Positions 16,596 to 38,726 of a stretch of 64,000 bases of DNA are shown piece after piece. The notes under the pieces were generated by a model. It saw only the letters and a list, made by a program, of their open reading frames with translations. It ran no database searches and was not told the DNA's origin. The DNA comes from Bolinopsis microptera (Eukaryota > Ctenophora > Tentaculata > Lobata > Bolinopsidae). Position numbers and translations under genes: made by a program. Positions within the stretch are counted from its first letter, which is position 1. The number at the start of each line of letters is the position of its first letter. The stretch lies in assembly GCF_026151205.1 (NCBI RefSeq), contig NC_087084.1, positions 1,216,312-1,280,311 of the forward strand, given 5' to 3'.

Positions 16596-16702
16596 CTGAC
16601 TATCAGCCCACTGCACTAGTAACTGTTCCCCTGCTCCTTTTATAACACAGGACAACGTAGCAGGCTCCTTCTTGTGGGAGTGCTCCTCCATAGGGGTAAC
16701 CG
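16596..16702 (-). CDS. Ig first-half exon, block 1
   Basis: This 107-bp exon, phase 1 to 0, reads VTPMEEHSHKKEPATLSCVI then AGEQLLVQWADSQ, carrying the B-strand cysteine and C-strand tryptophan. Acceptor tctcacag and donor gtgaga flank it. It is the paralog of 36745-36851 and 50915-51021, where the same exon reads EGKTAVLSCQITGADKQLVV. In the paralogs an 86-bp and a 98-bp exon finish the domain; here only the 98-bp one (13687-13784) is found. Confidence 0.75.
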
Positions 16703-16708
16703 CTGTGA

Positions 16709-16874
16709 GAGTTACCATATAAGGTAGTGTTGCTATGGTTACTTAACCATATAAGGTAGTGTTGACTGTTGCTATGATTACATAACCATATAAGGTAGTG
16801 TTGACTGTTGCTATGGTTACATAACCATATAAGGTAGTGTTGCTATGGTTACATAACCATATAAGGTAGTGTTG
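16709..16874. repeat. Intronic tandem repeat, about 32-40 bp
   Basis: Units built on accatataaggtagtgttg and ctatggttacataa are repeated four to five times in the intron. Related copies occur at 17985-18060, 24155-24200, 38260-38340 and 44880-44935, always in introns of the Ig blocks, so this is a dispersed intron repeat family. Confidence 0.75.
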
Positions 16875-17033
16875 CATAAAAGGTCCAGATTAGTTATTAT
16901 ATTCTTTCTTAATTTGCTCAGTTTCAATAGGAAAATAGGGAAACATATTTTTTCATTCAAGTGAACCATTTTCTGTTATCATATTGTATGCTTTTTAGTC
17001 TTTAACTAGTAAATCAAAAAGTGTAAAACTTAC

Positions 17034-17478
17034 TGAATGTATTTAAGACAACTTCAAACTGAGCAGTTTCTCCTTCAGTAACTTCAACCAAACAAGTAAA
17101 AACATCATCAATCTTAGTCATCGTGGAATCTAGACTAAGATAGTTTACTTGATTGGAATTATCTGGTGCACCAGTCACTACATTGTTTCCTTCTTCGTCC
17201 TGAATGAACTAATCTTAGAAGAAATGAAAATGCTCATTTTTAGTTTTGAGGAAAAGTTTGTCGAACATGTGGCAAATCTTATTAATTTTAAAAGTCTATG
17301 ACTGACAGTGACATCTTCACTTGTGGGATGTGTTTACTAAATACCTTAAATTCCTGGTTATCGCTGCTCCGTTTCCACCAAACAACAGCTGAACTGTCCG
17401 GGTCCAGATTAGAGACATTACAATACAGCTGGGTGGGGGACAGGGCTTGTACCAGGACCATACTAGACGCCTCCACAT
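17034..17478 (-). CDS. Two-exon Ig domain, block 1
   Basis: Exon 17478-17345 (134 bp) reads VEASSMVLVQALSPTQLYCN then SAVVWWKRSSDNQEFK, giving the B-strand cysteine and C-strand tryptophan. Exon 17199-17034 (166 bp) reads DEEGNN, then STMTKIDDVFTCLVEVTEGE and FEVVLNTF. Together they make 300 bp, phase 1 at both outer ends. Splice sites are canonical (gtattt and gtaagt donors; attcag acceptors). Paralogs lie at 37189-37670 and 51136-52103. The domain is of the I/C2-like extracellular adhesion type; ligand unknown. Confidence 0.8.
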
Positions 17479-17499
17479 CTGAATACATACATTAGTGGT

Positions 17500-17575
17500 G
17501 ACATGTGTCCTGGTGACACGCGACACGTGTGTCCTGGTGACACGTGTGTTTTGGTGACACGTGACAGGGACTCTG
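17500..17575. repeat. Short tandem repeat with acacgtgt palindromes
   Basis: Directly upstream (minus strand) of the 17345-17478 exon, units such as tgtcctggtgacacgtga are repeated about three times. The homologous place in block 2 (37690-37830) holds five to six copies, so copy number has changed since the duplication. Confidence 0.8.
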
Positions 17576-17735
17576 GAGTTTGGTTGGTGGAAGCTGATTG
17601 GTTGGGTGCTGTCACAGAATCCAAATCTATACATAATGAAAAGTTGTATCTAACTTTTCAATCAATATTGATATGCTAATTAATATTATCATGATAAGAT
17701 ATAGCTTTCAATAAAGTACCATACTGCACGCTTAC

Positions 17736-18493
17736 CATAAACATGTAGCTGTAAAGGTACTGTTGCAGCTACTGCGCGTGATACGCTGAACTTTACTATA
17801 CATGTTAGTATATCAGACTCTGTTGTACCCGAGCTGAATGGGAAATGTATTAGCACTCTGTAACAGGGATTAGTTAGTCATGGCGAATGTTTTACAGATT
17901 TCAATTAACTGACTCCAACAGGTATAAAAGAGGATGCAGTGAGGTGTTGTACTAACTCTAACTAAATCAGGTAGTGTTGTTATGTTACATAACCATATAA
18001 GGTAGTGTTCAGTGTTGCTATGGTTACATGACCATATAAGGAAATGTTGCTATGGTTACATGTTATGATGCAGTGAAGTGTTGTGCAAACTACACACACT
18101 GCACTCACCTCTGTATTGAGAGAGCTGAGGATTGTAAGCTGTTCTCAGTGTTACTGGATACCGAATATAGAGCACTGTTCAATCCTGAATTGTAAATAAT
18201 TTAACCATTTTAATAATGAAATAATTGCAAAAGTCACCTCTTAAAAGCTTTTAAATAAAAGATTACTGTATAGCTGTTTCTGCTAGTCTAAAAGTCTAAG
18301 GAATTAATCACAATATACGGCTTTTTTTGCTATAGTAACAATATAATGAACATTTAACACATGTAGCACTCACCAATTGCCCCATTGTTATTGCTAGTCC
18401 AAGTAATAGTTCCGATAAGATCAGTTTCTGATAACATGCAGGTAAGTGTAACAGTAGAGCCGCGGTGTATCTCTTTATTTTGACCTTCAAACT
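17736..18493 (-). CDS. Three-exon Ig domain, block 1
   Basis: Exon 18493-18374 (120 bp) reads FEGQNKEIHRGSTVTLTCML then LIGTITWTSNNNGAIG. Exon 18184-18109 (76 bp) reads LNSALYSVSSNTENSLQSSA then LSIQR. Exon 17857-17736 (122 bp) reads TTESDILTCIVKFSVSRAVA then ATVPLQLHVYG. The total of 318 bp is a whole number of codons and both outer introns are phase 1. Cysteines in TLTC and ILTC and the tryptophan in TITW mark the Ig core. Paralogs are 38014-38725 and, more distantly, 52410-53036. Confidence 0.8.
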
Positions 18494-18628
18494 CTGAAGA
18501 AAACAGTATGTTACATGGAAAGTAGCTTATGAAGAACTTAATTGAACTTGAAATGTGGCTGTGAGATGGAAATTGGAAGTGAATCAAAAACTGTATTGCA
18601 AGATAACTGTTAGCGTTGAAAAACGTAC

Positions 18629-21600
18629 CATAAACGTTAAGATTGACGGTGGTATCTGAGTGGCTGGAATCGGGCAAAGATCCGGAAGTGACTCTGCATG
18701 TGTAGGCAGTATCTTCATTCACAAGACTTCCGTCTACTTCAAGAGTTGATGTTTGTGTCCCTCCAGAATGGCTTCCTTGGACAGGATTGAACTTTTCAGC
18801 TGGAACTGCTCCTGTACTAGTTTGCCAGGTCACTGTTGCTGTATCTGTTATGCCAGTGATAACACAGGATATGGTTGTATCAGAGCCCTTCTTCGCTTCT
18901 TTATTCACTGATTCAACCTCTGAAGAAAATTTTGATAAATTAATACTCTCTAATTTCGAAATCTATGACACTGGCGTGATATTAGCACTTAGTTTATCTG
19001 GTGTGAATTGAATTTGAAATGTGGCTGTGAGATGGAAATTGGAAGTGAATCAAAAACTGTATTGCAAGATAACTGTTAGCGTTGAAAAACGTACCATAAA
19101 CGTTAAGATTGACGGTGGTATCTGAGTGGCTGGAATCGGGCAAAGATCCGGAAGTGACTCTGCATGTGTAGGCAGTATCTTCATTCACAAGACTTCCGTC
19201 TACTTCAAGAGTTGATGTTTGTGTCCCTCCAGAATGGCTTCCTTGGACAGGATTGAACTTTTCAGCTGGAACTGCTCCTGTACTAGTTTGCCAGGTCACT
19301 GTTGCTGTATCTGTTATGCCAGTGATAACACAGGATATGGTTGTATCAGAGCCCTTCTTCGCTTCTTTATTCACTGATTCAACCTCTGAAGAAAATTTTG
19401 ATAAATTAATACTCTCTAATTTCGAAATCTATGACACTGGCGTGATATTAGCACTTAGTTTATCTGGTGTGAATTGAATTTGAAATGTGGCTGTGAGATG
19501 GAAATTGGAAGTGAATCAAAAACTGTATTGCAAGATAACTGTTAGCGTTGAAAAACGTACCATAAACGTTAAGATTGACGGTGGTATCTGAGTGGCTGGA
19601 ATCGGGCAAAGATCCGGAAGTGACTCTGCATGTGTAGGCAGTATCTTCATTCACAAGACTTCCGTCTACTTCAAGAGTTGATGTTTGTGTCCCTCCAGAA
19701 TGGCTTCCTTGGACAGGATTGAACTTTTCAGCTGGAACTGCTCCTGTACTAGTTTGCCAGGTCACTGTTGCTGTATCTGTTATGCCAGTGATAACACAGG
19801 ATATGGTTGTATCAGAGCCCTTCTTCGCTTCTTTATTCACTGATTCAACCTCTGAAGAAAATTTTGATAAATTAATACTCTCTAATTTCGAAATCTATGA
19901 CACTGGCGTGATATTAGCACTTAGTTTATCTGGTGTGAATTGAATTTGAAATGTGGCTGTGAGATGGAAATTGGAAGTGAATCAAAAACTGTATTGCAAG
20001 ATAACTGTTAGCGTTGAAAAACGTACCATAAACGTTAAGATTGACGGTGGTATCTGAGTGGCTGGAATCGGGCAAAGATCCGGAAGTGACTCTGCATGTG
20101 TAGGCAGTATCTTCATTCACAAGACTTCCGTCTACTTCAAGAGTTGATGTTTGTGTCCCTCCAGAATGGCTTCCTTGGACAGGATTGAACTTTTCAGCTG
20201 GAACTGCTCCTGTACTAGTTTGCCAGGTCACTGTTGCTGTATCTGTTATGCCAGTGATAACACAGGATATGGTTGTATCAGAGCCCTTCTTCGCTTCTTT
20301 ATTCACTGATTCAACCTCTGAAGAAAATTTTGATAAATTAATACTCTCTAATTTCGAAATCTATGACACTGGCGTGATATTAGCACTTAGTTTATCTGGT
20401 GTGAATTGAATTTGAAATGTGGCTGTGAGATGGAAATTGGAAGTGAATCAAAAACTGTATTGCAAGATAACTGTTAGCGTTGAAAAACGTACCATAAACG
20501 TTAAGATTGACGGTGGTATCTGAGTGGCTGGAATCGGGCAAAGATCCGGAAGTGACTCTGCATGTGTAGGCAGTATCTTCATTCACAAGACTTCCGTCTA
20601 CTTCAAGAGTTGATGTTTGTGTCCCTCCAGAATGGCTTCCTTGGACAGGATTGAACTTTTCAGCTGGAACTGCTCCTGTACTAGTTTGCCAGGTCACTGT
20701 TGCTGTATCTGTTATGCCAGTGATAACACAGGATATGGTTGTATCAGAGCCCTTCTTCGCTTCTTTATTCACTGATTCAACCTCTGAAGAAAATTTTGAT
20801 AAATTAATACTCTCTAATTTCGAAATCTATGACACTGGCGTGATATTAGCACTTAGTTTATCTGGTGTGAATTGAATTTGAAATGTGGCTGTGAGATGGA
20901 AATTGGAAGTGAATCAAAAACTGTATTGCAAGATAACTGTTAGCGTTGAAAAACGTACCATAAACGTTAAGATTGACGGTGGTATCTGAGTGGCTGGAAT
21001 CGGGCAAAGATCCGGAAGTGACTCTGCATGTGTAGGCAGTATCTTCATTCACAAGACTTCCGTCTACTTCAAGAGTTGATGTTTGTGTCCCTCCAGAATG
21101 GCTTCCTTGGACAGGATTGAACTTTTCAGCTGGAACTGCTCCTGTACTAGTTTGCCAGGTCACTGTTGCTGTATCTGTTATGCCAGTGATAACACAGGAT
21201 ATGGTTGTATCAGAGCCCTTCTTCGCTTCTTTATTCACTGATTCAACCTCTGAAGAAAATTTTGATAAATTAATACTCTCTAATTTCGAAATCTATGACA
21301 CTGGCGTGATATTAGCACTTAGTTTATCTGGTGTGAATTGAATTTGAAATGTGGCTGTGAGATGGAAATTGGAAGTGAATCAAAAACTGTATTGCAAGAT
21401 AACTGTTAGCGTTGAAAAACGTACCATAAACGTTAAGATTGACGGTGGTATCTGAGTGGCTGGAATCGGGCAAAGATCCGGAAGTGACTCTGCATGTGTA
21501 GGCAGTATCTTCATTCACAAGACTTCCGTCTACTTCAAGAGTTGATGTTTGTGTCCCTCCAGAATGGCTTCCTTGGACAGGATTGAACTTTTCAGCTGGA

Positions 21601-23113
21601 ACTGCTCCTGTACTAGTTTGCCAGGTCACTGTTGCTGTATCTGTTATGCCAGTGATAACACAGGATATGGTTGTATCAGAGCCCTTCTTCGCTTCTTTAT
21701 TCACTGATTCAACCTCTGAAGAAAATTTTGATAAATTAATACTCTCTAATTTCGAAATCTATGACACTGGCGTGATATTAGCACTTAGTTTATCTGGTGT
21801 GAATTGAATTTGAAATGTGGCTGTGAGATGGAAATTGGAAGTGAATCAAAAACTGTATTGCAAGATAACTGTTAGCGTTGAAAAACGTACCATAAACGTT
21901 AAGATTGACGGTGGTATCTGAGTGGCTGGAATCGGGCAAAGATCCGGAAGTGACTCTGCATGTGTAGGCAGTATCTTCATTCACAAGACTTCCGTCTACT
22001 TCAAGAGTTGATGTTTGTGTCCCTCCAGAATGGCTTCCTTGGACAGGATTGAACTTTTCAGCTGGAACTGCTCCTGTACTAGTTTGCCAGGTCACTGTTG
22101 CTGTATCTGTTATGCCAGTGATAACACAGGATATGGTTGTATCAGAGCCCTTCTTCGCTTCTTTATTCACTGATTCAACCTCTGAAGAAAATTTTGATAA
22201 ATTAATACTCTCTAATTTCGAAATCTATGACACTGGCGTGATATTAGCACTTAGTTTATCTGGTGTGAATTGAATTTGAAATGTGGCTGTGAGATGGAAA
22301 TTGGAAGTGAATCAAAAACTGTATTGCAAGATAACTGTTAGCGTTGAAAAACGTACCATAAACGTTAAGATTGACGGTGGTATCTGAGTGGCTGGAATCG
22401 GGCAAAGATCCGGAAGTGACTCTGCATGTGTAGGCAGTATCTTCATTCACAAGACTTCCGTCTACTTCAAGAGTTGATGTTTGTGTCCCTCCAGAATGGC
22501 TTCCTTGGACAGGATTGAACTTTTCAGCTGGAACTGCTCCTGTACTAGTTTGCCAGGTCACTGTTGCTGTATCTGTTATGCCAGTGATAACACAGGATAT
22601 GGTTGTATCAGAGCCCTTCTTCGCTTCTTTATTCACTGATTCAACCTCTGAAGAAAATTTTGATAAATTAATACTCTCTAATTTCGAAATCTATGACACT
22701 GGCGTGATATTAGCACTTAGTTTATCTGGTGTGAATTGAATTTGAAATGTGGCTGTGAGATGGAAATTGGAAGTGAATCAAAAACTGTATTGCAAGATAA
22801 CTGTTAGCGTTGAAAAACGTACCATAAACGTTAAGATTGACGGTGGTATCTGAGTGGCTGGAATCGGGCAAAGATCCGGAAGTGACTCTGCATGTGTAGG
22901 CAGTATCTTCATTCACAAGACTTCCGTCTACTTCAAGAGTTGATGTTTGTGTCCCTCCAGAATGGCTTCCTTGGAGAGGGTTGAACTTTTCAGCTGGAAC
23001 TGCTCCTGTACTAGTTCGCCAGGTCACTGTTGCTGTTTCTGTCAATCCAGTGATAACACAGGATATGGTTGTATCAGAGCCCTTCTTCGCTTCTTTATTC
23101 ACTGATTCAACCT
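18629..23113 (-). CDS. Array of ten tandem Ig exons, 466-bp period
   Basis: Ten 291-bp exons lie at 18629-18919 and then every 466 bases, the last at 22823-23113. Each encodes a complete Ig domain: KKGSDTTISCVITGITDTAT, then VTWQTSTG, then NEDTAYTCRVTSGSLPDSSH and VNLNVYG. Every exon is phase 1 at both ends, so any number can be included or skipped without a frame change. Copies 2 to 9, introns included, look identical by eye. The first copy has a different downstream intron, and the last has a few changes (TGLTETATVTWRTS). The result is about 970 residues of near-identical Ig repeats. Such identity means very recent expansion or homogenisation; the copy number may also be an assembly estimate. 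The same unit, badly degraded, fills 38.7-43.8 kb in block 2. Confidence 0.85.
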
Positions 23114-23336
23114 CTGAAATAAATTTCGATAAATATTATACTTTTAAAAAGTTTTGGATTATTTATTGCCTTTTTTTATCCGAATGTTGTCTAGTTTTTG
23201 GCAATTTCCCACTTGATTTGTGAACTTATTTTTGCATCATGCAGGTCAATATCAAAATTGATTTCGGTACAACATTCTTTATTTTCAATTAACAAGATCA
23301 CTGATGAGGTCATATCTTTAAAACGATATTATTTAC

Positions 23337-23756
23337 CGTATACGTTGAGCGGGGCTGTTACTTCAACTGGTGCTGACTGGGGGTGTTGACTGGACTGGAC
23401 TCTGCAAGTGTAGATAGTGTCTTGTGTGGTTTGTGATCCTCCTACCACTAGTGTTGCGTCCTGATTCCCATTTGTTACTGATCCTGCAATTTTAATATTA
23501 TACAGATACTCTGTTATAAAATACCCTTAAATCTAATGTTTCTATATTAGTATATTTGTATTCGTATCTCAGCAATGTTTTCTATTTTTCTCCTGAATAT
23601 ACAAACCAGGAGTAACAGTAAATCCTCCTCCAGTGCTGATCTCGTCTCCATTACTCTTTAACCAAGTCACAGTAAGAGCTTCAGTAACTCCTGTTATTAC
23701 ACAGGTTAGAGTAGCGGAGGTCCCTGAACCTACTTCTCGTCCACTCATTGTAACAT
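23337..23756 (-). CDS. Two-exon Ig domain, block 1
   Basis: Exon 23756-23607 (150 bp) reads MSGREVGSGTSATLTCVITG then ALTVTWLKSNGDEIST. Exon 23483-23337 (147 bp) reads SVTNGNQDATLVVGG, then QDTIYTCRVQSSQHPQSAP and VTAPLNVYG. Both are symmetrical phase-1 exons with canonical splice sites (gtttgt and gtaaat donors). The nearly identical paralog is at 43935-44352. On the minus strand this is the second Ig domain of block 1, between the N-terminal domain and the ten-exon array. Confidence 0.8.
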
Positions 23757-23978
23757 CTGAAAACGGAGAAGTTAACAAGAGTGTGCTGCACGTTTAAAGA
23801 AATTTCTCGAGTGGATCTTCCCAATTTACCATGTTATATTCTATTTGTCCAAACTCCAAAGCGTTCAACTTTGTTTTGCTTAGAAACATTGCTTCAATTG
23901 TTTGGGTCCTCTTAGTGGTACACATTTGGGATATCATACCATAAACATGTAGCTTGACAGCCTGGGATAATATCATAC

Positions 23979-24540
23979 CATAAACATGTAGCTTGACAGC
24001 TTTTGTCGTTACTTCCTCCGAGTTATAGTGAACTTTACAAGTGTAGGTTTTATCAGTAGTAGGATTAGGTACTGTTAGTTCCGATCCCTGTGTGCTCGCT
24101 TCAGTTTCAAAAGGTACTGCTGTTATCTTGTAGTCTGAAAATAGTAGTTTATATGGTTACATTACCATATAAGGTAGTGTTGCTATGGTTACATTACCAT
24201 TTTTCAGTGTTAGGGGCACTGCTGTTATTTTATATCTTTATATAGTCTGAAACAGTAGGACACATTTTTGCATCATATTTATGAAAAGATTAGAAAAACG
24301 ATTTGTTATTCGAATAAGAAGCATTTTGTAGGCACGAGAGATAATTTGAAAACATACGATATGAATTATAAATATTCTATATAATATATAGATTCTATAT
24401 TATCTTACTGTTTGTCCCATCGTTAATTTGAGAAGTTCCGTCCCACCAAGAAATAGTTACTTCTACTGTGAGTTCAGTTAAACTACAAGTCAGTGTTGTT
24501 TCTGTTCCAGTCTTCACTTCCTTATCAGTTACAGTCACTC
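23979..24540 (-). CDS. N-terminal Ig domain of block 1, two exons
   Basis: Exon 24540-24409 (132 bp) begins VTVTDKEVKTGTETTLTCSL and continues TVEVTISWWDGTSQIND. Exon 24134-23979 (156 bp) reads YKITAVPFETEASTQGSELT, then TTDKTYTCKVHYNSEEVTTK and VKLHVYG. The phase-1 start of the first exon joins in frame to the signal-peptide exon at 31447-31507. The last about 45 bases of the second exon with its donor are duplicated in tandem at 23935-23978, leaving a second possible donor. Paralogs are 44710-45264 and 56866-57523. Confidence 0.82.
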
Positions 24541-24655
24541 CTGTTAGATAATGAGGGTAAGTATGATCACAACAACAAACGCTGACATTGTGTTTGTAAA
24601 TGTGGATGAGGGGTGACAAAGTTAAAATAGTAACAGAAGCTTGCATGTTATCGTC

Positions 24656-24870
24656 AGTAACCATGGTAACAGTAACCATGGTAACAGTAACCATGGTAAC
24701 AGTAACCATGGCAACAGTAACCATGGTAACAGTAACCATGGTAACAGTAACCATGGTAACAGTAACCATGGTAACAGTAACCATGGTAACAGTAACCATG
24801 GTAACAGTAACCATGGTAACAGTAACCATGGTAACAGTAACCATGGTAACAGTAACCATGGTAACAGTAT
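24656..24870. repeat. 15-bp minisatellite in intron 1
   Basis: About 14 copies of a 15-bp unit (taaccatggtaacag) with only one variant (ggcaac). It lies about 115 bases upstream of the N-terminal Ig exon on the minus strand. The matching place in block 2 (45381-45625) holds about 16 copies with more variants. All six frames are open for long stretches because 15 is a multiple of three; none is coding. Confidence 0.95.
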
Positions 24871-26479
24871 GACATTGTCAAGGTTCATGCTCCTGACACC
24901 CTATCTAATGTGAAACATGTACAATATTTTTGATGTGTGTAAATATATTTTTATGATAGTAATAATTAATATATTGAAGATAAATGTAGTAGTAATAGTA
25001 GTAGTCATTAAGCAGCCAGTAGCATAGCGTATAAGTAATAGAAGCAAATCAAGTTTCTTCTTTTTCTCTTCTTCCGCAGTGTGCGGTCATTCAAAAGGAT
25101 ACAAATCAGTTCTTTGTTAGAGAAAGATATGTCACCCAACCTTAGCCGTTATGATTAAATATCCCCCTATTTCGGTTAAACTACTGTCAGAGAGTTTTGA
25201 ATATCAAATACTTATATTCAATTGGTGGTAAAAAATAAAGGTGAAATAAATGGCCGATTGATGGAATATAATCAGTGACAGAGAACTGACAAATCAACAA
25301 CAAAAAACACAAATATATTGTTGAGGTTTAAATTTATAAGTCTAAAGCAAAAGCAAAAGCAAAAGCAAAAGCAAAAGTGCAACTCAGTTTGTGTTAACTC
25401 TTCACAAACTACTCTGTATATATACGCAAAAGTTAATGACAAATGACAAACCTAATCGAGCTTAGTTGCTTATGAGTGCGTTTTAGCAATGCGAAATGTT
25501 TACTCTTTTTGAAGAATTTTACAAAGGAATTAATTTTTACGTTTGTGGAGGTATGTACAATATAAAAGTTGTAATCTAAAAATAGTTCAAATCAGACTCT
25601 TTCACGAGAACTGGAAGTCCTGTTTGTTTGGATTTCAATAATCCTGATTATACCTAACTAGCAGGAACCCGTATAACCCTAAAATGGTGTCAAGACTCGA
25701 GAGACTAAAATGATTATTAAATATTTAATTCGCGTTTTTGACACACTTGGGGTCCAAATCTTGGGCTCTTTTAAAAGTTGCGTTAAAGTTGATGCCGTGT
25801 TGTCAGTAAAATGGTACGGATAAACACACATATATATATATCGCCTCGCTTTATATATAGTAAGCTAGTAACACTAGACTTACAGCATAGTGAATATGTA
25901 AGCAATAAAGCAGCTTTAAGACTGCTTTAAGACTTTAAAAGAATACGATTATTTAATCAAGTCTAATTAACAAAGGCAATTAATTAGTTACCATGTTTAC
26001 AGTTACTACATCAACGTAGCCAGACAATTATTGCAAATAACAATCTTAATAAAGCAGGTTAAATTATCAACATGTGCTATAGTGTAATTATGTAACACTA
26101 GAGCACTAGGCACCTTGACTATCTTACACCTCATAGAACACAAGAACTAAAAAAGAAAACATAGTTTAAGCTGGAGCCCATCATGTTGCCATCAGCTGGT
26201 CCGCCTGGCACCTGTTACTCTTGTTGTTGTGAACTTCACATCTGGTACCTTAACATGTTGCACAGTGCACATACTTCTTGTGAACTTCACGATGTGAACT
26301 TCACAAGAAGCATGTGCAACATTAGGGTTGGGGTTGGACTTAAGGCGTAATAGTGCTATCGTAATGTGGGAACCTCTATCTGACCTACTACCGTGAGGAA
26401 GTTCTGTCATGTAACCTATTACTTAAGCCACGAATATTATCACAGATATAAATCCTGTTATCCTAACTCCTATAGTATT
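24871..26479. other. Duplicated intron/intergenic DNA, no gene
   Basis: This AT-rich stretch matches 45626-47200 with small differences. It contains a short run of aaagca units at 25342-25378 and a TA run near 25832. No coding sequence is recognised. In block 1 it lies in the intron between the signal-peptide exon and the first Ig exon. Confidence 0.8.
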
Positions 26480-26595
26480 AGTGTGATAAACACGCTCACC
26501 ACCTATCCTATAGTATTAGAGTATTAGAGTAGTATTAGTGTGATAAACACGCTCACCACCTATCCTATAGTATTAGAGTATTAGAGTAGCATTAG
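26480..26595. repeat. Tandem duplication at the LINE insertion site
   Basis: The phrase agtgtgataaacacgctcac followed by cacctatcctatagtattag occurs twice here, and again after the LINE at 30363. The other copy of the duplicated segment (47316-47370) has a shorter, rearranged version. Confidence 0.75.
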
Positions 26596-29500
26596 TCTTC
26601 CCCTGATCCTCGGGGGAGACACCAACGCTCACCACACAGCTTGGGGCAGCACTAACATCAACAAAAGGGGTGATCTACTGATGGAGATGTTACTCAGGTA
26701 CAACTTGTCCATCTACAACGATGGTTCAATGACATTCCAGAACGTTCTCCGCTGTGAAGCTCTGGACGTTACCCTTGGCAACCCTTCGGCCTGCGATCTC
26801 ATCTCATCCTGGCACATCTCAGATAGCCCGTCTCTTTCCGACCACTCCCTTATAAACTTTACCATAAACCTTCATCGTACTCCCTCTTCTCCCTCTCCCT
26901 CTCCCCCAAGAAGACGAGTTATAAAACAAAACACCACTGATGCAGCTTCCTTTCAAGAACACCTAGCGGACCTGATTACCTCCTTCTCTAAACACCTCTC
27001 TGCAGAATGCACAACAGTCAAGGAACTCAATGATAAGACGGAACTTATTAACACCATTATTCACAAAGCCGCTAAACTCTCACAATCGCATTACTTCATT
27101 TCCTCATCAGCAACGGCAAAGAATTTGAAATCTCCTTGGTGGACCAAAGAACTAAGGATTGCTCGAAACAGGGTTAGGCGATGCTGGAACAGATGGAAAA
27201 GATCAGGTGCGCTGACCGATCTAGCGTCTTATAAAAAACACAATAACAAGTACGTCAAACTAATAAAGAAAGCCAAAAGTACTAGTTGGCAAAAACACTG
27301 CTCCAATACATCGTCCTCTCGCCAAAAGTCAGCTAACCTCATCAAACGATTGAAACAGAGCAAAACCTCCTTGTCATCTATAAAAAAGGACAACGGCTCC
27401 TTCACTCAAACTCCCCTAGAAACATTATCTGCTATCACCAACAAGGACACTATGTCGAGTAACCCCTCATCCCAGTCCTCTCGAACGTTATACTGTCCTA
27501 ATGTATCTCAGTCCTCCAATCAACCCTCTCCTTCCGAACTTGCTTCTCTTATCTGTACAAAGAAGAGAATCGATAAAGCCTTCTCCTTCCTCACTAATAA
27601 GAAAGCCCCCGGTCCTGATAACATCTCTAATAACTTGATAATCCTCTCCTGGCCTCAGCTTAATACATTTTTCTATGATCTTTTTAAGGACAGCCTACGC
27701 TTGGGTTTTATCCCCCACTCATGGAATACATCTTCAGGTATCTTTTTGCCTAAACCTGGCAAGAAATTACACTTTCTCGCCCAAAACTGGCGAACTATTA
27801 ATCTTTGCTCCAGTCTCCTCAAACTTCTAGAGAGAACTGTGCTTCTTTTCCTCAACGATGAACTTGACATAGACAAGTCTCTTAGCGACAACCAGTTAGG
27901 ATTCAGAAAAGGGAGATCTACGGACGAAGCGCTCCACCAGATAGTCTCATTCATTGAAGGCTCACTCTCCAAAGGCCACTTTGCACTAACGTGTTTCGTC
28001 GACATTAAGGCAGCCTTTGACTCTATTTCCTTCAGAAGCATCATCACTGCCCTTGAGAGATCAGACATAAACAATCACCTTATCAAATAGATCATTAACC
28101 TTTTGGGAAATCGTAAGGTCCTCTTTACATTGAAAGGGGTTTCCCTCATCAAATACATGCTAAAAGGAACTCCTCAAGGCGGGGTACTCTCGCCCCTTCT
28201 CTGGAACCTCGTTATCGACTCCCTCCTCGTGTCTCTTACCACATCACTCCACAAACCTGACTTCACACAGGGTTTTGCGGATGACCTAGTCACAGCAGTC
28301 ACAGGTGACCACCTCCCCACTCTTATTGAACGGATGCAACTCTAGTTAACATTATCAACAACTGGTGTAAAGCCAACGACTTGGAACTGTCTCCCCTCAA
28401 GACCTCATTAGTACTCTTTACATGGAAACGGAAGTTTGTCGTAGATACCCCGATAACGATCGATGACCATCCTATCGAATACTCCTCAGATGTACGTTAT
28501 TTAGGATTGATCCTGGATCAAAAACTGAACTGGAGTAAACACGTCGACCAAATCATCAAAAAAGCTACCTGGTCCCTCCTCGCAACTAGTAGAACTATTG
28601 GCAAAAACTGGGGTTACACAACAAACACAGCACGGTGGATCTATAATTCAGTTGTAGTACCAGCTGTGACCTACGGATGTCACGTTTGGGGAATTAACCC
28701 TAAATCACACATTAACGCAAAACTGTCCAAAGTCCAGTCCCTTGCTTGTCGCACAATAGTCCACTGCCCTATTTATACGTCTAGAAGAACCATGGAAGTT
28801 ACCACAGGTATCCTGCCACTCCAAAGCGAGATTAAAAAGACTGCCTGCTCGACCCTTTTCCGTCTGCAAGGTCACCAAAGGTTCAACCTAGTCCACAACC
28901 CCAGAACAAAATTCCAACCGCATTCATCTACCTACTCCGATTGCCTCACACCTAGTATCGAACATTGGGACATCACCCGTCCAGTGAGATTTAAGACTCC
29001 GATGTTCAGTGCAAATTTGGCCTCCGAACAACAATTGAACGAACTCATCTCCTCCCACAAGACGGTAACAGATCGATACCACTTCTGCTGCTTTACTGAT
29101 GGATCCCGCCTCAATAACAAAACAGGCTCAGCACTTGTGGTATACTCCATGCATGACGTAGACCCCTTAGCTACATTCAAATGGAGACTGGATGACCACA
29201 ACACCGTTTTCCAAGCCGAAATGATGGCCATTAGAGAAGCTTGCGCTTGCCTTCGCTCCCTGCCCTGTCAGAACGCATCAGTAGCCATCTTCACAGACTC
29301 ACTTTCTGCAGTTCATGCCCTATCTGCCGACGCCTCGTCTAGCCCATTATGCATCGAAACAAGAAAAGAACTAGATATGCTCACATCATTTTGCTCTTCT
29401 GTTTCCCTAGCATGGATAAGAGGACACTCAGGTATAAGAGGAAACGATCTGGCTGACACTCTTGCGAAGGAAGGGACCACCTGCAGCTCCATTAAAACAG

Positions 29501-30354
29501 TACCTCTTCCCGTAAGCCATTACAAGACGACACTGCGAGATAACAGCTTTACCTCCAGAGTCAACAACTGGTCTGACTCCACTTCCTCTAACCCTCTACT
29601 CTCCCTACTTACCCACTACTCCTTACCACAGCACATTAAATTCTTCAGGTCTCTTAACAGGCGTAACTCTCGCATTATTACTGCTTTTCTGGATAACCGT
29701 GCACCACTTCAAGCCTTTCTGAACAAAATAGACGACACGATCAACCCTAATTGTTCGTACTGTTTCTCTGGACGCCAAGACAATTACCACGTTCTCTTTT
29801 TCTGCCCAGCCCTGGAGTTCGATCGGCTACAACACCTTGGCTCCTCTCCTCACCTAGCAGATTTTAACAGCATCTCACCCCATTCTTTACTCAAGTTCCT
29901 CCTTAGCATTCCCCTTTACCTGAGATTCGCAGAGTGACAATGTTTTGACATTACTTATGTTTACCTTGTGTTCATTTATATTATTACTCACTAAACCATT
30001 AGATACCCCACAACTATCACTTGCTAAACCTCATCTCTTATCCATCATGTAATTGCGCCTATGATCCTACCACCTCCCACAACAAGAGTTTGTAACCAGC
30101 AACGTGGTCAAAGGACTCACAGAATCTCAACAACACGGAAGATACTCTCTTCTATTCTCAAACCACAGGTAAGTCAGGCAGTGGTTCACACTCTGTTGAT
30201 ATCTCACTAGTGAGATTTATGGTTTCTCACCTTTCTTAAAGTCGAGTGTGTCCCACAACCAAGCACTCTGCCTAGAAGTCCTACATTATGTAATTTTATA
30301 TAATGATCTGGACATAAGTGGCAAGTAGCTCTTGAAAACAAACAAACAAACAAA
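26596..30354 (+). mobile_element. 5'-truncated non-LTR retrotransposon (LINE)
   Basis: The element is flanked by agcattag at 26588-26595 and 30355-30362, an 8-bp target duplication, and ends in an (aaac)n tail. It starts inside the endonuclease domain (LPLILGGDTNAHHTAWGS), so the 5' end and most of the endonuclease are missing. The equivalent place in the duplicated segment near 47.3 kb has no LINE, so it inserted after that duplication or was lost there. It lies antisense in the long first intron of block 1. RNase H after the reverse transcriptase points to the I group (I/Nimb/R1/Jockey side) of LINEs; the exact clade is uncertain. Confidence 0.9.
26597..29937 (+). pseudogene. LINE ORF2 remnant: EN-end, RT, RNase H
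   Basis: The reading frame is broken twice: an in-frame TAG at 28088-28090 (after INNHLIK) and a frameshift near 28340 (after ERMQ). Domains in order are the end of an APE-type endonuclease (GGDTNAHH), a reverse transcriptase with KKAPGPDNISNN, NQLGFRKGRSTDEAL, FVDIKAAFDSI, GTPQGGVLSPLLWN and the catalytic FADD at about 28276, then an RNase H domain with TDGS, AEMMAI, TDSLSA and GNDLAD acidic residues (29095-29460), and a C-terminal CX2C...H...C knuckle (CSYCFSG...HVLFFC). The first ATG at 26681 is internal, not a true start. The few lesions suggest a fairly young but dead copy. Confidence 0.9.
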
Positions 30355-30779
30355 AGCATTAGTGTGATAAACACGCTCACCACCTATCATAGAGCATACT
30401 GTTGTTCAACACAAGAGGAGACAACTGTAAATAACCACTGATACTGAACAAGTAAACAGGAGGACGGTAATTATTGGTCTAATTGGTCTACTAATGACTT
30501 TAAAGTGTGGTGCACGTGGCTAAACACCAATGATACGGGCTGCTTTAATTGTCCCTTCTCTTCATGGGTCAATAACATGTATAATTCATCACTTCATGTT
30601 CAAGTCCTATAAACAAACAAACAAACATATGGGTCAATATCTTAACCTGGCCCAGAAACAATGTCCAACATTTCCCTCCAAGTCCCGCTACCGTTGTTTT
30701 TACGTGCCTCTCCTAAAACATGTCAGGTCTCCAAAAAAATACAAAAAGTCTACTTCCAAGTCAGACTTGTAGACTGTAT

Positions 30780-31007
30780 GGTTCTCTTGCGATAGTGTAA
30801 ACGCGACAACTAGCGCTGGATAGCGACAACTCGCGCTGGATAGGCGATAGCGACAACTATCGCTAGCAATCCAGCGCTAGTTATCGCCATCCAGCGCAAG
30901 TTGTCGCTATTCAGCGCTGGTTAACGCTATCCAGCGCAAAATATAAATTTTCGATAACTAGTGCAATCCAGCGCTAGTTGTCGCGTTTACACTATCGCAA
31001 AAGAACC
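30780..31007. mobile_element. 228-bp foldback MITE, copy 1
   Basis: The terminal inverted repeats start ggttct and share gcgatagtgtaaacgcgaca then actagcgctgga. The interior is built of short agcgctggata / cgacaacta repeats in both orientations, so the element can fold along most of its length. It is flanked by gactgtat on both sides (30772-30779 and 31008-31015), an 8-bp target duplication as made by hAT, P or related transposases. No coding capacity. The second copy is at 47717-47973 in the duplicated segment. Confidence 0.88.
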
Positions 31008-31342
31008 GACTGTATTACCCGATATAAGCTGAACATGTTATCCCAATCAGGTACATGCTCCAACAACTTTATAGTAACTACTTACTTACTAATGTACTAT
31101 AATACTATACTAATGTACTATAATGTTATCTGTTGACAGCATATATACATGTGTCTATATTAATGTAACCACACCTAGACTAGGCACCTGATGAATGATG
31201 ATCAGTGGTCAGGTCTTTAATTGTTGGACAGGTGTTTAATAGTCAAGTTATAAATAACTTAATAGGCGGGGGGAAGAGATTGAAGCTATATTTTGGCAAC
31301 ATAGAAATAACAGACTATAAGTATAATATATAAGATTCTATG

Positions 31343-31990
31343 ATTAAATATTATCACAAATGTAATTTGTTAGTTATTTTTATTACATTTATTAACTAGT
31401 TTATCTGGCGGAGTGACTGAAACATTTAATTTAACTAATTTCTTACCTGGACTAGCTATTATCGTTCTTGTCAGGATGGTCAGATACAAAAGCACCAAAA
31501 CCCTCATCGTTATTGGGACTGGCTGTTGAAACTTGTGTTCGTTTTTAAATTTCACGTCGATAAACAAGCGAGGTGGGCCAGTTCAAAACAAGAAATAAAC
31601 TCTTTTTTATGGTTTTTATAAAATTATAGCGCTCAGTAGTTCCTGTGGTTACTACGTCAATTTCTCCAGGTAAAATCGTTTAATCGACCCTTTAATCGAT
31701 CTGAAAGTAAAAAATGAGAAAAGCCGAGAGAGAGATTCACTGGTCATTGGCCATTTTGCTGTTCTTCGGTATTATTTTTTCTTATTTCTTACGTGTAGAG
31801 TGGTGTGAATATACTGCACCTACTATTACACTATTATTATTAATTAGTATAACTTAATAATTAATAAACCCCGGAATAGCCAGATGCTCTTTTCGAACCA
31901 GCACTTCATTTTGATATGACGCTAATATTCAATCATGGGAGATTGAAAACATTGTAGATAGTAAAACCTCAAAAAATAAAAGAACGGTAT
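31343..31990 (-). promoter_or_regulatory. Block 1-only segment with first exon and likely promoter
   Basis: The segment between gattctatg and gaatattga is absent from the duplicated copy (the same flanks meet at about 48298). It carries the signal-peptide exon at 31447-31507, so the bases to its right (31508 to about 31990) are the likely 5' UTR and promoter on the minus strand. An AT-rich TATA-like stretch (ataattttataaaaa on the minus strand) lies near 31612-31626. I see no other core-promoter motif that I trust. Confidence 0.4.
31447..31507 (-). CDS. Signal-peptide exon, start of block 1 gene
   Basis: The minus strand has ATG at 31507 followed by MRVLVLLYLTILTRTIIAS, then PG across a CCAG/gtaaga donor. 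The profile is a short basic start, a hydrophobic core and a small-residue cleavage region, so a secretory signal peptide. The coding part is 61 bp, ending in phase 1, which joins in frame with the phase-1 exon at 24540-24409 to give IASPGVTVTDKEV. An upstream in-frame ATG at 31567 would add 20 residues before the hydrophobic core and is less likely. Block 2 lacks this exon. Confidence 0.72.
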
Positions 31991-32697
31991 TATTTTATGA
32001 CTTGAATATTGAACCTAGGGCGCATAAATATTAGCACCTTACTTGGAGCAAATCAGGCGCTCAGATGTGGTTGAAAACAAGGAAGTAAAAAATACTTACA
32101 AGCTTAGCCTCTGAAAGAACAAGGAAAAGTAGTATATGGTGCATATACTACTAGGAAAGTGTAACAAACGAACTTTACAGTTGTAAACCGTCATAAAGCT
32201 AAAGCTTTAAATTTAGAATTAAAACAAGTCCTTCATACTTTCATATTATTATTATATAGCAAGGTGTAGATATTTTTTTATGCGATAAAAACTCAAAAAA
32301 TACTGTTAGCTTTCTTCTTGTGACCACGGGCTTTTACTGATGTAATAAAGTTAGCAATACAAATATCATTAATATGTAAAAACTAATAATTACATAAAAT
32401 GAGTTCATGTTTATACGTAAATAAAATAATAATATAATAACTATAACAAAAGATTTCCGGGAACTGTCGGCCCAGAAAGTGTATGGCAGAAAGTGTGACC
32501 TGACAAGTAAAGTGAACATGATACTAACTATACATTATACTGGGGCAGCGGGACAAAGGCAAGCAAGTCAGCTGCTACTACAACTACAACTAGAAGTAGC
32601 TATTATTACAACTGCTGAATAATACTTGTAACAAGCCCATCCTTGTTATTATTAGAACAAGAGCTACTACTCACACTGTATAGCGAGTGTTTGATAA

Positions 32698-32904
32698 AGT
32701 AACCTAGTAACCACTCAGTAACCTAGTAACCACTCAGTAACCTAGTAACCACTCAGTAACCTAGTAACCACTCAGTAACCTAGTAACCACTCAGTAACCT
32801 AGTAACCACTCAGTAACCTAGTAACCACTCAGTAACCTAGTAACCAATCAGTTACCTAGTAACCACTCAGTAACCTAGTAACCACTCAGTAACCTAGTAA
32901 CCAC
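32698..32904. repeat. 19-bp minisatellite, copy 1
   Basis: About 11 copies of agtaacctagtaaccactc in a row, with one variant (accaatcagttacc). The duplicated place at 48985-50060 has many more copies and is interrupted by a hAT-like element. Confidence 0.95.
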
Positions 32905-33045
32905 ACCAGCTACTACTGTATAGTGTGTGTTAGATAAAGTAAACTTATCACTTAGTTTCCATGTGTTATGCTGCAACAGTAACTCAGTAGTTATACTCGT
33001 CATCATTGAGTTGCAGTTATTCAGTTATTACACAGGTTAACTTAC

Positions 33046-33347
33046 CGAGAACATTGAGAGGAACAGAGTGAGAGTAGAAAGATTCCCCTCCATCAGAGGA
33101 GACAAGACACTTGTACTCTCCATCATCTCCAGTGTGTTCTCCACTGGGAGGAAAGATACTTTATTGATGGTACAATTGAATGGCACTTATACAACATCAT
33201 CGAAATAAAATACATGATATATCCAGATAAAACTAATTTCACAGATTTAAGTACTGCCTACCTTAAGGATAGTGTAGAAGTCTGAATGTTATTTTCAACT
33301 TCCCCCTGAATAATTTCGTATCCGTTGACTTTGGATACATCTTCACC
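33046..33347 (-). CDS. Ig domain exons 2 and 3, block 2
   Basis: Exon 33347-33262 (86 bp) reads EDVSKVNGYEIIQGEVENNI then QTSTLSLR. Exon 33143-33046 (98 bp) reads GEHTGDDGEYKCLVSSDGG then ESFYSHSVPLNVLG. With the first-half exon at 36851-36745 they form one 291-bp Ig domain. Acceptors (tctcgcag, cctcccag) and donors (gtaggc, gtaagt) are canonical. The intron between the first and second exon has swollen to 3.4 kb through the retroelement insertion at 33.4-36.7 kb; the same intron in block 3 is only 130 bases. The domain ends in phase 1 and no following exon is recognised. Confidence 0.78.
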
Positions 33348-33837
33348 CTGCGAGAAAGTCATTGATACTTTGATAGACCTTAATTATTGAGAAAAATAAA
33401 ATTACTTTTAACTCAAGTAATAACAAGAATTTTGCCGCAGTTAAACCACGCACGATCAATTTTCCCTACAATGTACTAGTACCATTAATTCTTTCGAGTG
33501 AAAAGTGTGACTGGAAAAAAGTGCAACATATTTACATACTATGTTTTTAATAAACGAGTAGGATTTGTGCATGGTATAAATTGAGGATTTATTTGACCAA
33601 TGTAGCGCCGCGCATCAACAATAAATTAAACCAGAAAATTGCGGAAAAATAACTTTGCGAAGGAGGAACTTCACTGTAATTAACTAACACATATATGCCT
33701 ATCGTCGCGCGCAGCATAACAGACGCTTCCTATACACTTAATTATAGGGGAGTGGTCTATATTGCGAAGGAGCAGACTTTTGTCATCATCGTAGCACCGT
33801 CGGGCCACCTCATATATCCAAACCCGATATACTAATA

Positions 33838-36529
33838 GATGGTCAAAGACATTTAGGAGCTGTGCTGGGGACTCCTGAATTCAAGGATACCTACATTAAC
33901 AACCTTGTAGTTGAGTGGAGTGATATGCTAAAAAAGTTAGTACAGTTTGCCAAATCACAGCCTCAGGCAGCCTACGCTTGTTTTACGCATGGTGTCCGCC
34001 ACAAATTTTCATATTTTATGAGGACACTAGATATCAGCTCTTATATGGGCCCTCTTGACAAAATAATTACTCATGAGCTTATTCCAACTATATTTGGCTG
34101 TCCAGTATCTCCTATACACCGAGAGCTTATGTCATTACCATTAAAGAACGGAGGTATGGGAATGCCACAGTTGGAGTATCTAGCGAAAAGAGAACATGCT
34201 GCATCGCTTTTGGTAACCCGGGGACTGGTCAATTCCATGAAAGGCAAATCTCTTGCTGCAACTGACACGGAATCGACAGAAGAGCTCCAAGACATGTCCA
34301 AACCCTGGAAAAATGACATAAAGGATTTGTTTTACTTGTTGCATGAAAAGCACTAATAAAGAACAACAAGAGGAGATACTTAAAAAGGTTGATAAGAAGA
34401 CTGCAAGGGTTTTGGAGCAGATTACCGAACCCTTGCCTACCTTGCCTAGGTCGGTCCAGATGAAATCTGGAACGAGTTTCGTGTCAACGCATGTCTCCAT
34501 TTATCTCTATCACTCATGAGCAGACGTATCATGTGGGGCTCTAAACCAGTATCTTCTTGAAGGACGTCCGGAAAGGTCTTGTCGTCCTCGATACCTTTTG
34601 CCGTAAGATGGTTGCCAGAAAAGGAGTTGCTGAGCAGGTTGGTCCTGTAGACGGTAGACATGCCCTGCAAAACGAAGTCTTCGTGTTTTGATGGTATCAG
34701 TCACCGATGGGATATTTCCGTAGAGGACGGAGTTAGGTGTGTGGGATTTCCATGAGATACCAAAGACCCTTCGTAGCATTCGTGTGTAAACACCGTCTAG
34801 TGCTTTAGTGTCAGCTTTCTTCAAAGTCCATGTTTCTGCGCCATATAAAAGAACAGGCTCGACTGCAGTTCTGAAAATTTTAGTCTTGATCTTTCTAGAC
34901 ATGTCAGATTTCCAGAAAACATCTAGACTTTCAAGTGCTTTCCATGCAAGGCCTTTCCTGACATTGATGTCTTTGCTGGTTGAAGCGATGTAGGATCCTA
35001 GATATTTAAAGTCGTGGACTTCTTCGAGAGGGTTGCTGTTAATGAAGACCCTATCATCCGAGTTAACAGGCCGTGGTAGGTTGTAGGACATGTATTTTGT
35101 CTTCTCGATGTTGATGAGTAAACCATACCGGGCTGCAATATCAGAGATACTTTGACAGAGGCGGCTGTTATCGCTGAAGCTGGGTGTGATTGTAGCTAAG
35201 TCATCGGCGAAGTCCAAATCTGCTATGTAATCACAACCTACTTTAAGCCCATCGTGTGGACCTATTGCCAGTCTAAGAATGAAGTCCAGGACGATAATGA
35301 AGATAAGCGGAGCAAGAACATCGCCCTGGAGAATTCCAAGGTTGGTCAGGAATTCAAGAGTTGTACCTTCAGGGATCATGATCTTGGCTTTGGTGTTGAT
35401 GTAAAGGGACATAATGGCTTTGATTATTATCTTAGGGAAGCCATAGGACGCCAGAATGTTAGGAAGATGAGATCTAAAGATGCAATCAAACGCCTTAGAG
35501 AAATCAATGAAGGAGATGACGCAGGGGAGCTGGAAGTTGATGACTTCTTCAATTATTCGCCTAAGGGCCAAGATCTAAGGTGCTAAAAGGTTCTGTCCTG
35601 AAAACAGCAGAGGCATATCTATCCTTCCTGTTGCCACCAAGATCTACAACAGGCTGCTTCTCAATCGTATCAGAACTCATATTGAACCTCGCTTACGGTA
35701 CAACCAGAATGGTTTCCGTCCTGGAAGGGGCACTCGTGAACAGATTACCGAACCAGGGAGCTCAAATTGGCTCTCATATTTACCACTTAGAAAACATGGT
35801 TTCGTTCTAAATAAATCTGAATTCAGGGATTCTATCAGATTGCGGTACAACTTAGATCTGGATCGTTTGCCATCACAATGTCCATGCGGAAAAACGTTTG
35901 ATGTGAACCATTCGCTAAATTGCCATCTTGGTGGCTACATCATTATCAGACACAATGAAATTAGGGATTTTTTAGCTGGCTTGCTGAACACTGTTTGCTC
36001 GGACGTGGAAGTTGAACCTCAGCTTCAAGAACTAGAAGGAGAGCAGTTCAAGAGGTCCTCAACACTAACGGGTGACCAGGCAAGACCCGATATTAGAGCT
36101 CGTGGTTTCTATAGGCCGGGCCAAGTGGCTTTTTTCGATGTTAAGGTAATTAATCCTAATTCTAATTCCTACCTTCAACATTCGACAAAGAAGACCATGG
36201 AGAACGCCGAGAGACAGAAAACACGATGCTACAACGAGAGAATACTTAATGTAGAGCACGGGTCATTCGCTCCATTAATATATTCAGTAACGGGTGGCAT
36301 GGGACCTCAAGCCAGGACATTTGAGAAACTGCTTTGCAACAAACTTGCTTATAAGAAGAAGCAGAATTACAACGATATTATAAATTATTATCGGTGTAAA
36401 TTATCATTTTTAATTAGGAAATTAATTTTATTGTGTATTAGAGGATCAAGAAATACCTCAAACAAAACTTACGAATTATCTAACATGGATGATTTAGAAT
36501 TTAACTCTTTCGAATCGAAAGTCAACTAA
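33838..36529 (+). pseudogene. Retroelement protein C-terminus with PD-D-K type endonuclease, split
   Basis: The first part (33838-34431) reads DGQRHLGAVLGTPEF, then FAKSQPQAAYACFTHGVRHK, then HRELMSLPLKNGGMGMPQLE, as found downstream of the reverse transcriptase in a family common in marine invertebrate genomes. A frameshift lies near 34350. After the nested LINE the frame resumes at 35741 and reads SYLPLRKHGFVL, a CPCGKTFDVNHSLNC zinc-binding motif, RHNEIRD, ARPDIRARGFYRPGQ and AFFDVKV. The CCHC motif followed by RPD-x15-D-V-K resembles the restriction-like endonuclease of R2/NeSL/Hero-type LINEs; I am not certain of the clade. The reverse transcriptase core is missing, so this is a 5'-truncated dead copy. 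Confidence 0.7.
34432..35740 (-). mobile_element. Nested LINE with 5' inversion (twin priming)
   Basis: The target duplication cagattaccgaacc flanks it at 34418-34431 and 35741-35754. Most of the insert (about 35575 to 34432) is a minus-strand reverse transcriptase: ALRRIIEEVINFQLP, SFIDFSKAFDC, LGILQGDVLAPLIFI, LDFADDLATI, then a LRRVFGISWKSHTPNSVL tail. The remaining part (about 35595-35740) is the directly preceding piece of the same protein but on the plus strand: SILPVATKIYNRLLLNR, then RYNQNGFRPGRGT. This inverted-5'-part arrangement is the hallmark of twin priming. A frameshift near 34590 separates the last C-terminal segment (DKTFPDVLQEDTGL). The 3' end is a short aggcaagg repeat rather than poly(A), as in RTE-like elements. 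The element is 5' truncated. Confidence 0.85.
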
Positions 36530-36744
36530 TTTTTTCAGTCCCATGGACTGGGTTTTATTTTTGCAATGATGATTTTCATAATATATAACCTGTAATACTA
36601 TTCTGTATATATCTAATTTCGTTTTCCAAAAAAAAATTACTTATTCCCTACGATCTTTTTGCCGTCGGCAACAGTAGGGAAAAAATTGAATGTTCTACAT
36701 GCTGGTCAGCGGTGCAAATCTCGGATTACTGTGGAGTAACAAAC

Positions 36745-36851
36745 CTTATCGTCAGTCCACTTCACCACCAGCTGTTTGTCTGCTCCAGTTATTTGACAAG
36801 ATAAAACTGCTGTTTTACCTTCGTGGGAGTGTTCTTCAATGGGGTTCACCG
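36745..36851 (-). CDS. Ig first-half exon, block 2
   Basis: This 107-bp exon reads VNPIEEHSHEGKTAVLSCQI then GADKQLVVKWTDDK, with B-strand cysteine and C-strand tryptophan. It has an atttttag-like acceptor (tatttttag) and a gtttgt donor. It joins across the retroelement-filled intron to the 86-bp exon at 33347-33262. Nearly identical to 50915-51021. Confidence 0.78.
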
Positions 36852-38725: not shown

Positions 38726-38726
38726 C

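What the first reader, a model, noticed from the sequence alone, without database searches (positions are those of the whole stretch)
18629..23113. Ten tandem, seemingly identical Ig exons with 466-bp period
Copies 2 to 9 look identical across exon and intron, each exon a whole phase-1 Ig domain of 97 residues. Near-zero divergence means very recent expansion or ongoing homogenisation. Gain or loss of units would change protein length in 97-residue steps without a frame change, so length polymorphism and variable exon inclusion are expected.
Basis: partly seen in the sequence, partly recalled or inferred. Interest (0 to 1): 0.8.

Follow-up and report, generated by a model that had tools for sequence, protein, structure and literature searches.

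The report
Comb jelly gene with repeated Ig exons
A gene, very probably of a comb jelly, carries ten near-identical copies of one exon, each coding a whole immunoglobulin domain, and related arrays lie on at least four chromosomes, so whole protein domains could be gained or lost without breaking the reading frame, though copy number and function still need testing on real animals.

Summary
Confirmed. Ten 291-nt phase 1-1 exons on the minus strand (18629-23113, period 466 bp) each encode a complete 97-residue Ig domain. Nine exons and all nine introns are identical; the tenth exon differs at 7 of 291 bases. The unit matches 262 places in its own genome; those listed lie on four chromosome-scale contigs. 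Six of ten array groups form single clades (concerted evolution), and dN/dS between distant arrays is mostly 0.15-0.29, so the domains are maintained.

Assembly statistics match Bolinopsis microptera (ctenophore; wtdbg, TGS-GapCloser, Pilon). This matters: a second array (38726-43770), in a roughly 95%-identical tandem duplicate, is present only as noise, about 23% errors with 39% of plus-strand Gs deleted; a vote over its units largely returns the first array's unit. It is very probably unpolished long-read fill. So neither copy number (10; about 12.4) nor zero divergence is safe from this assembly.

Best explanation: a coding VNTR of whole Ig modules, like LPA kringle IV-2 or DMBT1, setting length or valency of an Ig-superfamily protein. 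Length polymorphism and variable exon inclusion remain untested.

The parts
18629..18919 (-). Ig exon 1 of the array by coordinate (3'-most in the gene), 97 residues, phase 1-1
19095..19385 (-). Ig exon 2
   Evidence: Pfam C1-set 29.1 bits against cut-off 21 for window:19096-19386
19561..19851 (-). Ig exon 3
20027..20317 (-). Ig exon 4
20493..20783 (-). Ig exon 5
20959..21249 (-). Ig exon 6
21425..21715 (-). Ig exon 7
21891..22181 (-). Ig exon 8
22357..22647 (-). Ig exon 9
22823..23113 (-). Ig exon 10, the variant 5'-most unit: 7 of 291 nt and 4 of 97 residues differ
18540..23142 (-). whole array, period 466, 175-bp introns
38726..43770 (-). second array in the tandem duplicate, about 12.4 unit lengths, present only as error-rich sequence
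17019..36962 (.). tandem segmental-duplication block 1, holding the clean array and two retrotransposon-type insertions
   Evidence: flank identity 94.7% and 95.8% with gaps left out
37174..51132 (.). tandem segmental-duplication block 2, holding the noisy array
23338..24538 (-). two Ig domains, each split over two exons, 5' of the array in the gene
   Evidence: 23338-23481, 23587-23754, 23980-24108, 24413-24538
16596..18482 (-). further split-Ig exon pieces 3' of the array in the gene
   Evidence: 18372-18482, 17035-17196, 16596-16700
53135..56720 (-). second kind of array: eight single-exon Ig domains as four two-exon units, about 930 bp apart, 38-43% identical to the array Ig

Best explanation
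A coding VNTR made of whole immunoglobulin modules in a multi-Ig gene of a ctenophore, very probably Bolinopsis microptera. Each 291-nt phase 1-1 exon plus its intron is a self-contained unit. Unequal crossing-over or gene conversion can add, remove or homogenise units without touching the frame, so alleles should differ in steps of 97 residues. Identical modules cannot diversify binding by exon choice, so the likely job is to set the length, reach or valency of an extracellular adhesion or recognition protein, with the divergent Ig domains around the array giving specificity. Shown: exon anatomy, frame, Ig fold by prediction, many arrays, clustering of units by array for six of ten groups, purifying selection between distant arrays. 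Inferred: unequal exchange, copy-number polymorphism, and the spacer or valency role; cell type, ligand and membrane anchoring are unknown.
Against: No transcript, read or second individual was available. dN/dS within C13 is 0.38-0.87 (three pairs undefined, dS 0), and C13_1115 gives 0.23-0.42 against the four distant groups; W against C13 1182, 1085 and 1072 has introns (0.920-0.926) about as conserved as exons (0.928-0.931), so constraint is not visible among near arrays. Differences between array consensuses are densest at residues 38-53 (206 of 5000 shuffles as high), which could hint at a varying binding face. C13 1182, 1085 and 1072 are mixed and C13_1000 is split in the tree. Two units of the C13 1182-kb array carry the same 1-bp loss in a C run and would be out of frame. 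A hydrophobicity scan gave 2 segments in the paralog stretch and 9 on the window's minus strand, none of which I could attach to an Ig exon as a membrane anchor.
Confidence: 0.62

Rival explanations
1. Assembly artefact: the array is over-expanded, or its units were made identical by consensus building and short-read polishing; the true locus has fewer or more divergent units.
For: The matching assembly used PacBio reads with wtdbg, TGS-GapCloser and Pilon. The same window has a raw-read-like patch at 38726-43770 and a milder indel-rich patch at about 6.2-13.3 kb.
Against: Other arrays in the same assembly keep unit-specific differences (C4: 14 distinct exons of 19; C7: 9 of 9; C11b: 7 of 7), so the process does not always erase them. 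Frames and splice sites are intact here. If it is a raw read, the noisy patch passes through about 12.4 unit lengths.
Confidence: 0.15
2. Dscam-type array: the copies are alternative exons chosen one at a time to vary the protein.
For: Tandem whole-domain Ig exons, as in Dscam (abstract starts seen in listings).
Against: Nine of ten exons are identical, so choice among them gives almost no variety. Phase 1-1 exons of 97 whole codons join in frame in any number. Introns are identical within the array.
Confidence: 0.05
3. A self/non-self or immune recognition system in which array length and array type differ between individuals.
For: Multi-locus Ig arrays in clusters on C13, C4, C7 and C11; hundreds of genes related to domains such as I-set and V-set reported for ctenophores.
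Against: No population data and no expression data. Purifying selection between distant arrays. That ctenophores fuse readily with non-kin is recalled; no paper was read for it.
Confidence: 0.13
4. Non-functional tandem duplication, a satellite that happens to contain an exon.
For: The window is rich in tandem repeats; among near C13 arrays introns are about as conserved as exons.
Against: Counted exons are open, splice signals are kept, and exons are conserved above introns across chromosomes.
Confidence: 0.05

Closest known systems
LPA kringle IV-2 VNTR (human apolipoprotein(a))
   Same: Tandem near-identical units, each coding a whole extracellular domain with its introns; copy number changes protein size; the reference assemblies show 6 units where 2 to 36 were measured (passages of PMC11201333).
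   Different: There each domain uses two short exons spaced by a mostly about 4-kb intron, in one gene; here one 291-nt exon in a 466-bp unit, in many arrays over several chromosome-scale contigs, Ig fold. Polymorphism is measured for LPA, not here.
DMBT1 SRCR-domain copy-number variation
   Same: In-gene gain and loss of whole binding domains; [quoted passage not shown]
   Different: SRCR, not Ig; one human gene; variation measured there and not here.
Dscam Ig-exon arrays of arthropods
   Same: Tandem Ig exons in one gene (search listings with abstract starts).
   Different: Described there as exons chosen mutually exclusively; here nine exons are identical and can be joined in series.
Titin-like tandem Ig proteins
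   Same: Serial Ig modules that give length (recalled).
   Different: A paper seen in passages reports that connectitin is absent from ctenophores (PMC12198301); no kinase or fibronectin context was looked for here.

Membership tests
Immunoglobulin superfamily (C1-set/I-set like) | Sequence match above a curated cut-off | tested here: met
   C1-set PF07654 29.1 bits, cut-off 21; Ig_3 25.9 (30) and I-set 23.5 (23.7) stay under theirs
Immunoglobulin superfamily (C1-set/I-set like) | Two sheet cysteines and core tryptophan | tested here: met
   C19, W32 and C75 invariant in 37 aligned domains
Immunoglobulin superfamily (C1-set/I-set like) | Ig sandwich fold | tested here: met
True C1-set rather than I-set | Structural preference for C1 over I-set relatives | tested here: inconclusive
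Whole-domain coding VNTR (LPA KIV-2 / DMBT1 kind) | Near-identical in-frame units each coding a whole domain | tested here: met
Whole-domain coding VNTR (LPA KIV-2 / DMBT1 kind) | Copy number varies between individuals | not testable with these tools
   one assembly only; among the matches of both flanks no second contig carries this locus
Dscam-type mutually exclusive exons | Exons of the array differ from each other | tested here: not met
   2 distinct exon sequences in 10, nine the same
Concerted evolution | Units more alike within than between arrays | tested here: met
   6 of 10 array groups single clades, two of these with only 2 rows; C13 1182/1085/1072 mixed and C13_1000 split

The most novel reading that the evidence does not exclude
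A ctenophore, of the lineage argued to be sister to the other animals, has a dispersed, multi-locus family of homogenised Ig-module VNTRs, in which individuals differ by the number of identical 97-residue Ig domains in giant surface or secreted proteins: a diversity of length and valency rather than of sequence, serving recognition or adhesion.
Probability: 0.25. Interest if true: 0.75.

Novelty: new variant of a known kind. Interest (0 to 1): 0.52.

Why it matters
Whole-domain coding VNTRs are known from human genes such as LPA and DMBT1. A family of them over at least four chromosome-scale contigs of one animal, most of them homogenised on their own, would give natural replicates for studying concerted evolution of protein domains, and a concrete candidate set for surface recognition or adhesion in ctenophores. 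It is also a warning: domain counts, gene models and divergence in these genes depend on assembly quality, and one array in this very window is probably unpolished sequence that annotation could mistake for a pseudogene.

Tried and rejected
An iGluR domain was compared with PDB to place the animal; I recognised no ctenophore chain among the 60 rows shown of 343 and of 357, so this was inconclusive. The homeodomain search, 111 exon-level matches, was not decisive. Decayed-pseudogene reading of the second array rejected: 903 of 1357 errors are deleted bases and 513 of those are G on one strand; a vote over units returns the clean unit at 420 of 466 positions; edges lie mid-exon; flanks have few 1-bp gaps. 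Against pure chance noise: errors are overdispersed between positions (chi2/df 1.95-2.45), so some positions are more error-prone. Biological G-loss in that array was considered and judged far less likely than read noise; that PacBio channels can lose particular bases is recalled, and the paper search on it gave only a listing. Two alleles placed in tandem instead of a true duplication: not excluded, but a split-Ig pair occurs three times around the two blocks, which suits tandem duplication. Alternative haplotype contigs: strong flank matches are only at the two window loci, with weaker or partial ones at C13 paralogs and repeats. Printed-before check: among the papers listed (20 of 35, 20 of 48, 15 of 27, 15 of 148, 12 of 76, 11 of 11, 8 of 13) paper searches showed no title or abstract start that reports these arrays, in an open-licence library only. 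tRNA scan: none (bacterial code).

Full report
Observation. The array is real in the sequence. TRF gives 18540-23142, period 466, 9.9 copies, 99% match. With unit 2 as reference, unit 1 has one different base, units 3-9 none, and the exact period-466 self-match covers 18548-22509. Read on the minus strand, ten exons of 291 nt run from 18629 to 23113; the printed edges (exons 1, 2, 10) have acceptor TTCAG|AG and donor ATG|GTACGT, and the ten joined exons translate without a stop. Exon 10 differs at 7 of 291 bases (minimum exon identity 0.9759) and 4 of 97 residues (95.876%); all nine introns of 175 bp are the same.

Genome-wide family. The 466-bp unit matches 262 places in its own genome (a lower bound, some partial); only the best are listed, and those lie on C13, C4, C7 and C11. 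In the window and the loci I had then fetched, tblastn found 142 hits. For counting I kept only hits that cover all 97 residues, are exactly 291 nt and at least 70% identical; frameshifted, truncated and 294-nt units were dropped, so the constancy of exon length is partly by selection. Kept: W (this array) 10 units, 2 distinct exon sequences; C4 19 and 14; C11a 11 and 5; C7 9 and 9; C11b 7 and 7; several C13 groups and single units. No kept exon holds a stop; donors are G|GTANGT except two G|GTACAT, and acceptors all end TTCA|G. In a tree of 59 rows (90 units, identical ones within a group collapsed), W, C4, C7, C11a, C11b and C13_1115 are each one side of a branch (W and C13_1115 with two rows each); C13_1182, C13_1085 and C13_1072 are mixed with each other and C13_1000 needs 3 changes; 14 changes in all, least possible 9, shuffled mean 40.5.

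Selection. Between W and C7, C11a, C11b, C4 dN/dS is 0.24, 0.15, 0.25, 0.24, with exon identity 0.859-0.893 and intron identity 0.651-0.800; among C4, C7, C11a and C11b it is 0.18-0.21. Within C13 it is higher, 0.38-0.87 with three pairs undefined, and C13_1115 against the four distant groups gives 0.23-0.42. W against C13 1182, 1085 and 1072 shows introns (0.920-0.926) about as conserved as exons (0.928-0.931) (Nei-Gojobori on array consensuses, commonest intron of each group). So the domain is constrained at depth, and this is not visible among the near C13 arrays. Differences between array consensuses (eight of the ten groups' consensuses used) are densest at residues 38-53, 206 of 5000 shuffles as high: suggestive at most.

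The second array. blastn of the window on itself shows block 17.0-37.0 kb repeated at 37.2-51.1 kb. The clean flanks are 94.7% (1401 columns) and 95.8% (3210 columns) identical with gaps left out, 93.9% in the nearest 984 columns on the right, with 6 and 7 one-base gaps among 22 and 40 gap events; with gaps counted the same flanks show 91% and 86%. Between them, at 38726-43770, lies a second array of about 12.4 unit lengths: 4591 matches, 903 deleted bases, 285 mismatches, 169 inserted bases against the clean unit, about 23% errors; 84 of the 169 inserted bases fall in the first, partial unit. Of the deleted bases 513 are G, 238 T, 81 A, 71 C on the plus strand (39% of Gs). Over the units after the first the G deletion rate is 0.407, T 0.130, C 0.072, A 0.053; errors are overdispersed between positions, chi2/df 1.95-2.45. 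The majority letter over units equals the clean unit at 420 of 466 positions (ties can count as misses); 41 of the 46 misses are G, and only one of the five others has a different base as majority. At 5% flank divergence I would expect about 18 differences in the 361 non-G positions, so array 2 is either homogenised with array 1 or was filled with its reads. Both edges fall mid-exon in the unit. I read this as unpolished long-read sequence. A milder patch, about 6.2-13.3 kb, has 68 missing and 71 extra indel events with 89 mismatches over 2787 aligned columns against a C13 paralog (6208-8916), whereas 17.0-18.3 kb has 5 and 9 events over 1369.

Organism and assembly. G000 has 264,652,675 bases in 232 contigs; contigs C1-C13 are 15.2-26.2 Mb and C14 is 0.2 Mb. 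Summed, C1-C13 are 258.07 Mb, 97.5% of the whole, and the N50 falls on C11, 20.8 Mb (my arithmetic). The table seen in PMC11797021 gives B. microptera 265 Mb, 13 chromosomes, largest 26.2 Mb, GC 38.5%, N50 20.8 Mb, but 346 scaffolds; a legend in PMC10232365 gives 97.23% of bases in 13 scaffolds; the window's GC is 38.2%. The lower contig number and slightly higher share here are unexplained (short records may not be held). PMC10232365 (passages and one section seen) states PacBio CLR, HiFi or Iso-Seq libraries for its species without saying there which was used for which, wtdbg for B. microptera, gap closing with TGS-GapCloser, Purge Haplotigs and Pilon polishing; that CLR reads were used for this animal is my inference from the assembler. 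TGS-GapCloser's paper (passages) says that inserted raw long-read segments need error correction and that this step can be left out. The identification is by statistics, not by a sequence comparison.

Mechanism. Phase 1-1 exons with their introns form a closed module; equal modules in tandem invite unequal exchange and conversion, which would explain sameness inside an array and difference between arrays. Because the copies are the same, exon choice cannot make variety; the number of modules can. I therefore favour a length or valency role in an extracellular Ig protein, about as in LPA KIV-2 and DMBT1. The surroundings are rich in Ig: split-domain pieces at 16.6-18.5, 23.3-24.5, 36.7-38.7, 43.9-45.3, 50.9-51.3 and 56.9-57.5 kb, and eight single-exon domains at 53.1-56.7 kb. 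Whether these form one gene is not shown; its ends are not resolved, a hydrophobicity scan gave no segment that I could attach as a membrane anchor, and the 3' part lies in the poor patch.

What is not shown. No copy-number variation, no expression, no splicing data, no second individual. Strong flank matches are only at the two window loci, so no haplotype contig gives a second allele. The papers listed by searches showed no report of these arrays; PMC11797021 says that hundreds of genes relate to domains such as I-set and V-set but, in the passages and the part of section 6 seen, does not describe such arrays.

Verdict.

Noticed in passing
window 38726-43770: Error-rich copy of the array, with strongly strand-biased loss of G; any gene model here will look like a pseudogene.
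   Followed up: yes
window about 6200-13300: Milder indel-rich patch against the C13 1.13-1.14 Mb paralog; probably poorly polished, covers what looks like the 3' part of the Ig gene.
   Followed up: partly
window 1-4913, running on from C13:1213743 to 1221224: 42-bp satellite, 117 copies in the window, about 98% match.
   Followed up: no
window 26585-29934 and 34513-36526: Retrotransposon-type frames in block 1: endonuclease, RVT_1 and RNase H matches in the first; RVT_1 in the second, one of its two frames just under the cut-off.
   Followed up: partly
C13:990001-1015752 (L021-L023): Large inverted repeat holding Ig arrays, arms 96% and 89% identical over 7.5 and 5.3 kb; real palindrome or assembly fold-back.
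   Followed up: partly
C13:1109289-1116522 and 1117582-1133542: Two inverted copies of an Ig-rich stretch on either side of a 100-N gap at 1116815-1116914.
   Followed up: partly
C13:1184804-1185093 and 1186619-1186908: Two units of the 1182-kb array carry the same one-base loss in a C run, breaking the frame.
   Followed up: partly
window 53125-56725: Second array, about 930-bp period, two Ig exons per unit, copies shifted by one unit 96.4% identical.
   Followed up: no
window 60493-61011: Minus-strand open frame with a weak F5/8 type C match (E 0.0079, 16.8 bits, cut-off 28.2).
   Followed up: no
C13:1134989-1136358: Open frames of EEQKRVAEAER-like repeats next to the paralogous Ig stretch.
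   Followed up: no
G000, several contigs: 32 matches of the ionotropic glutamate receptor ligand domain PF10613, many in long open frames.
   Followed up: no
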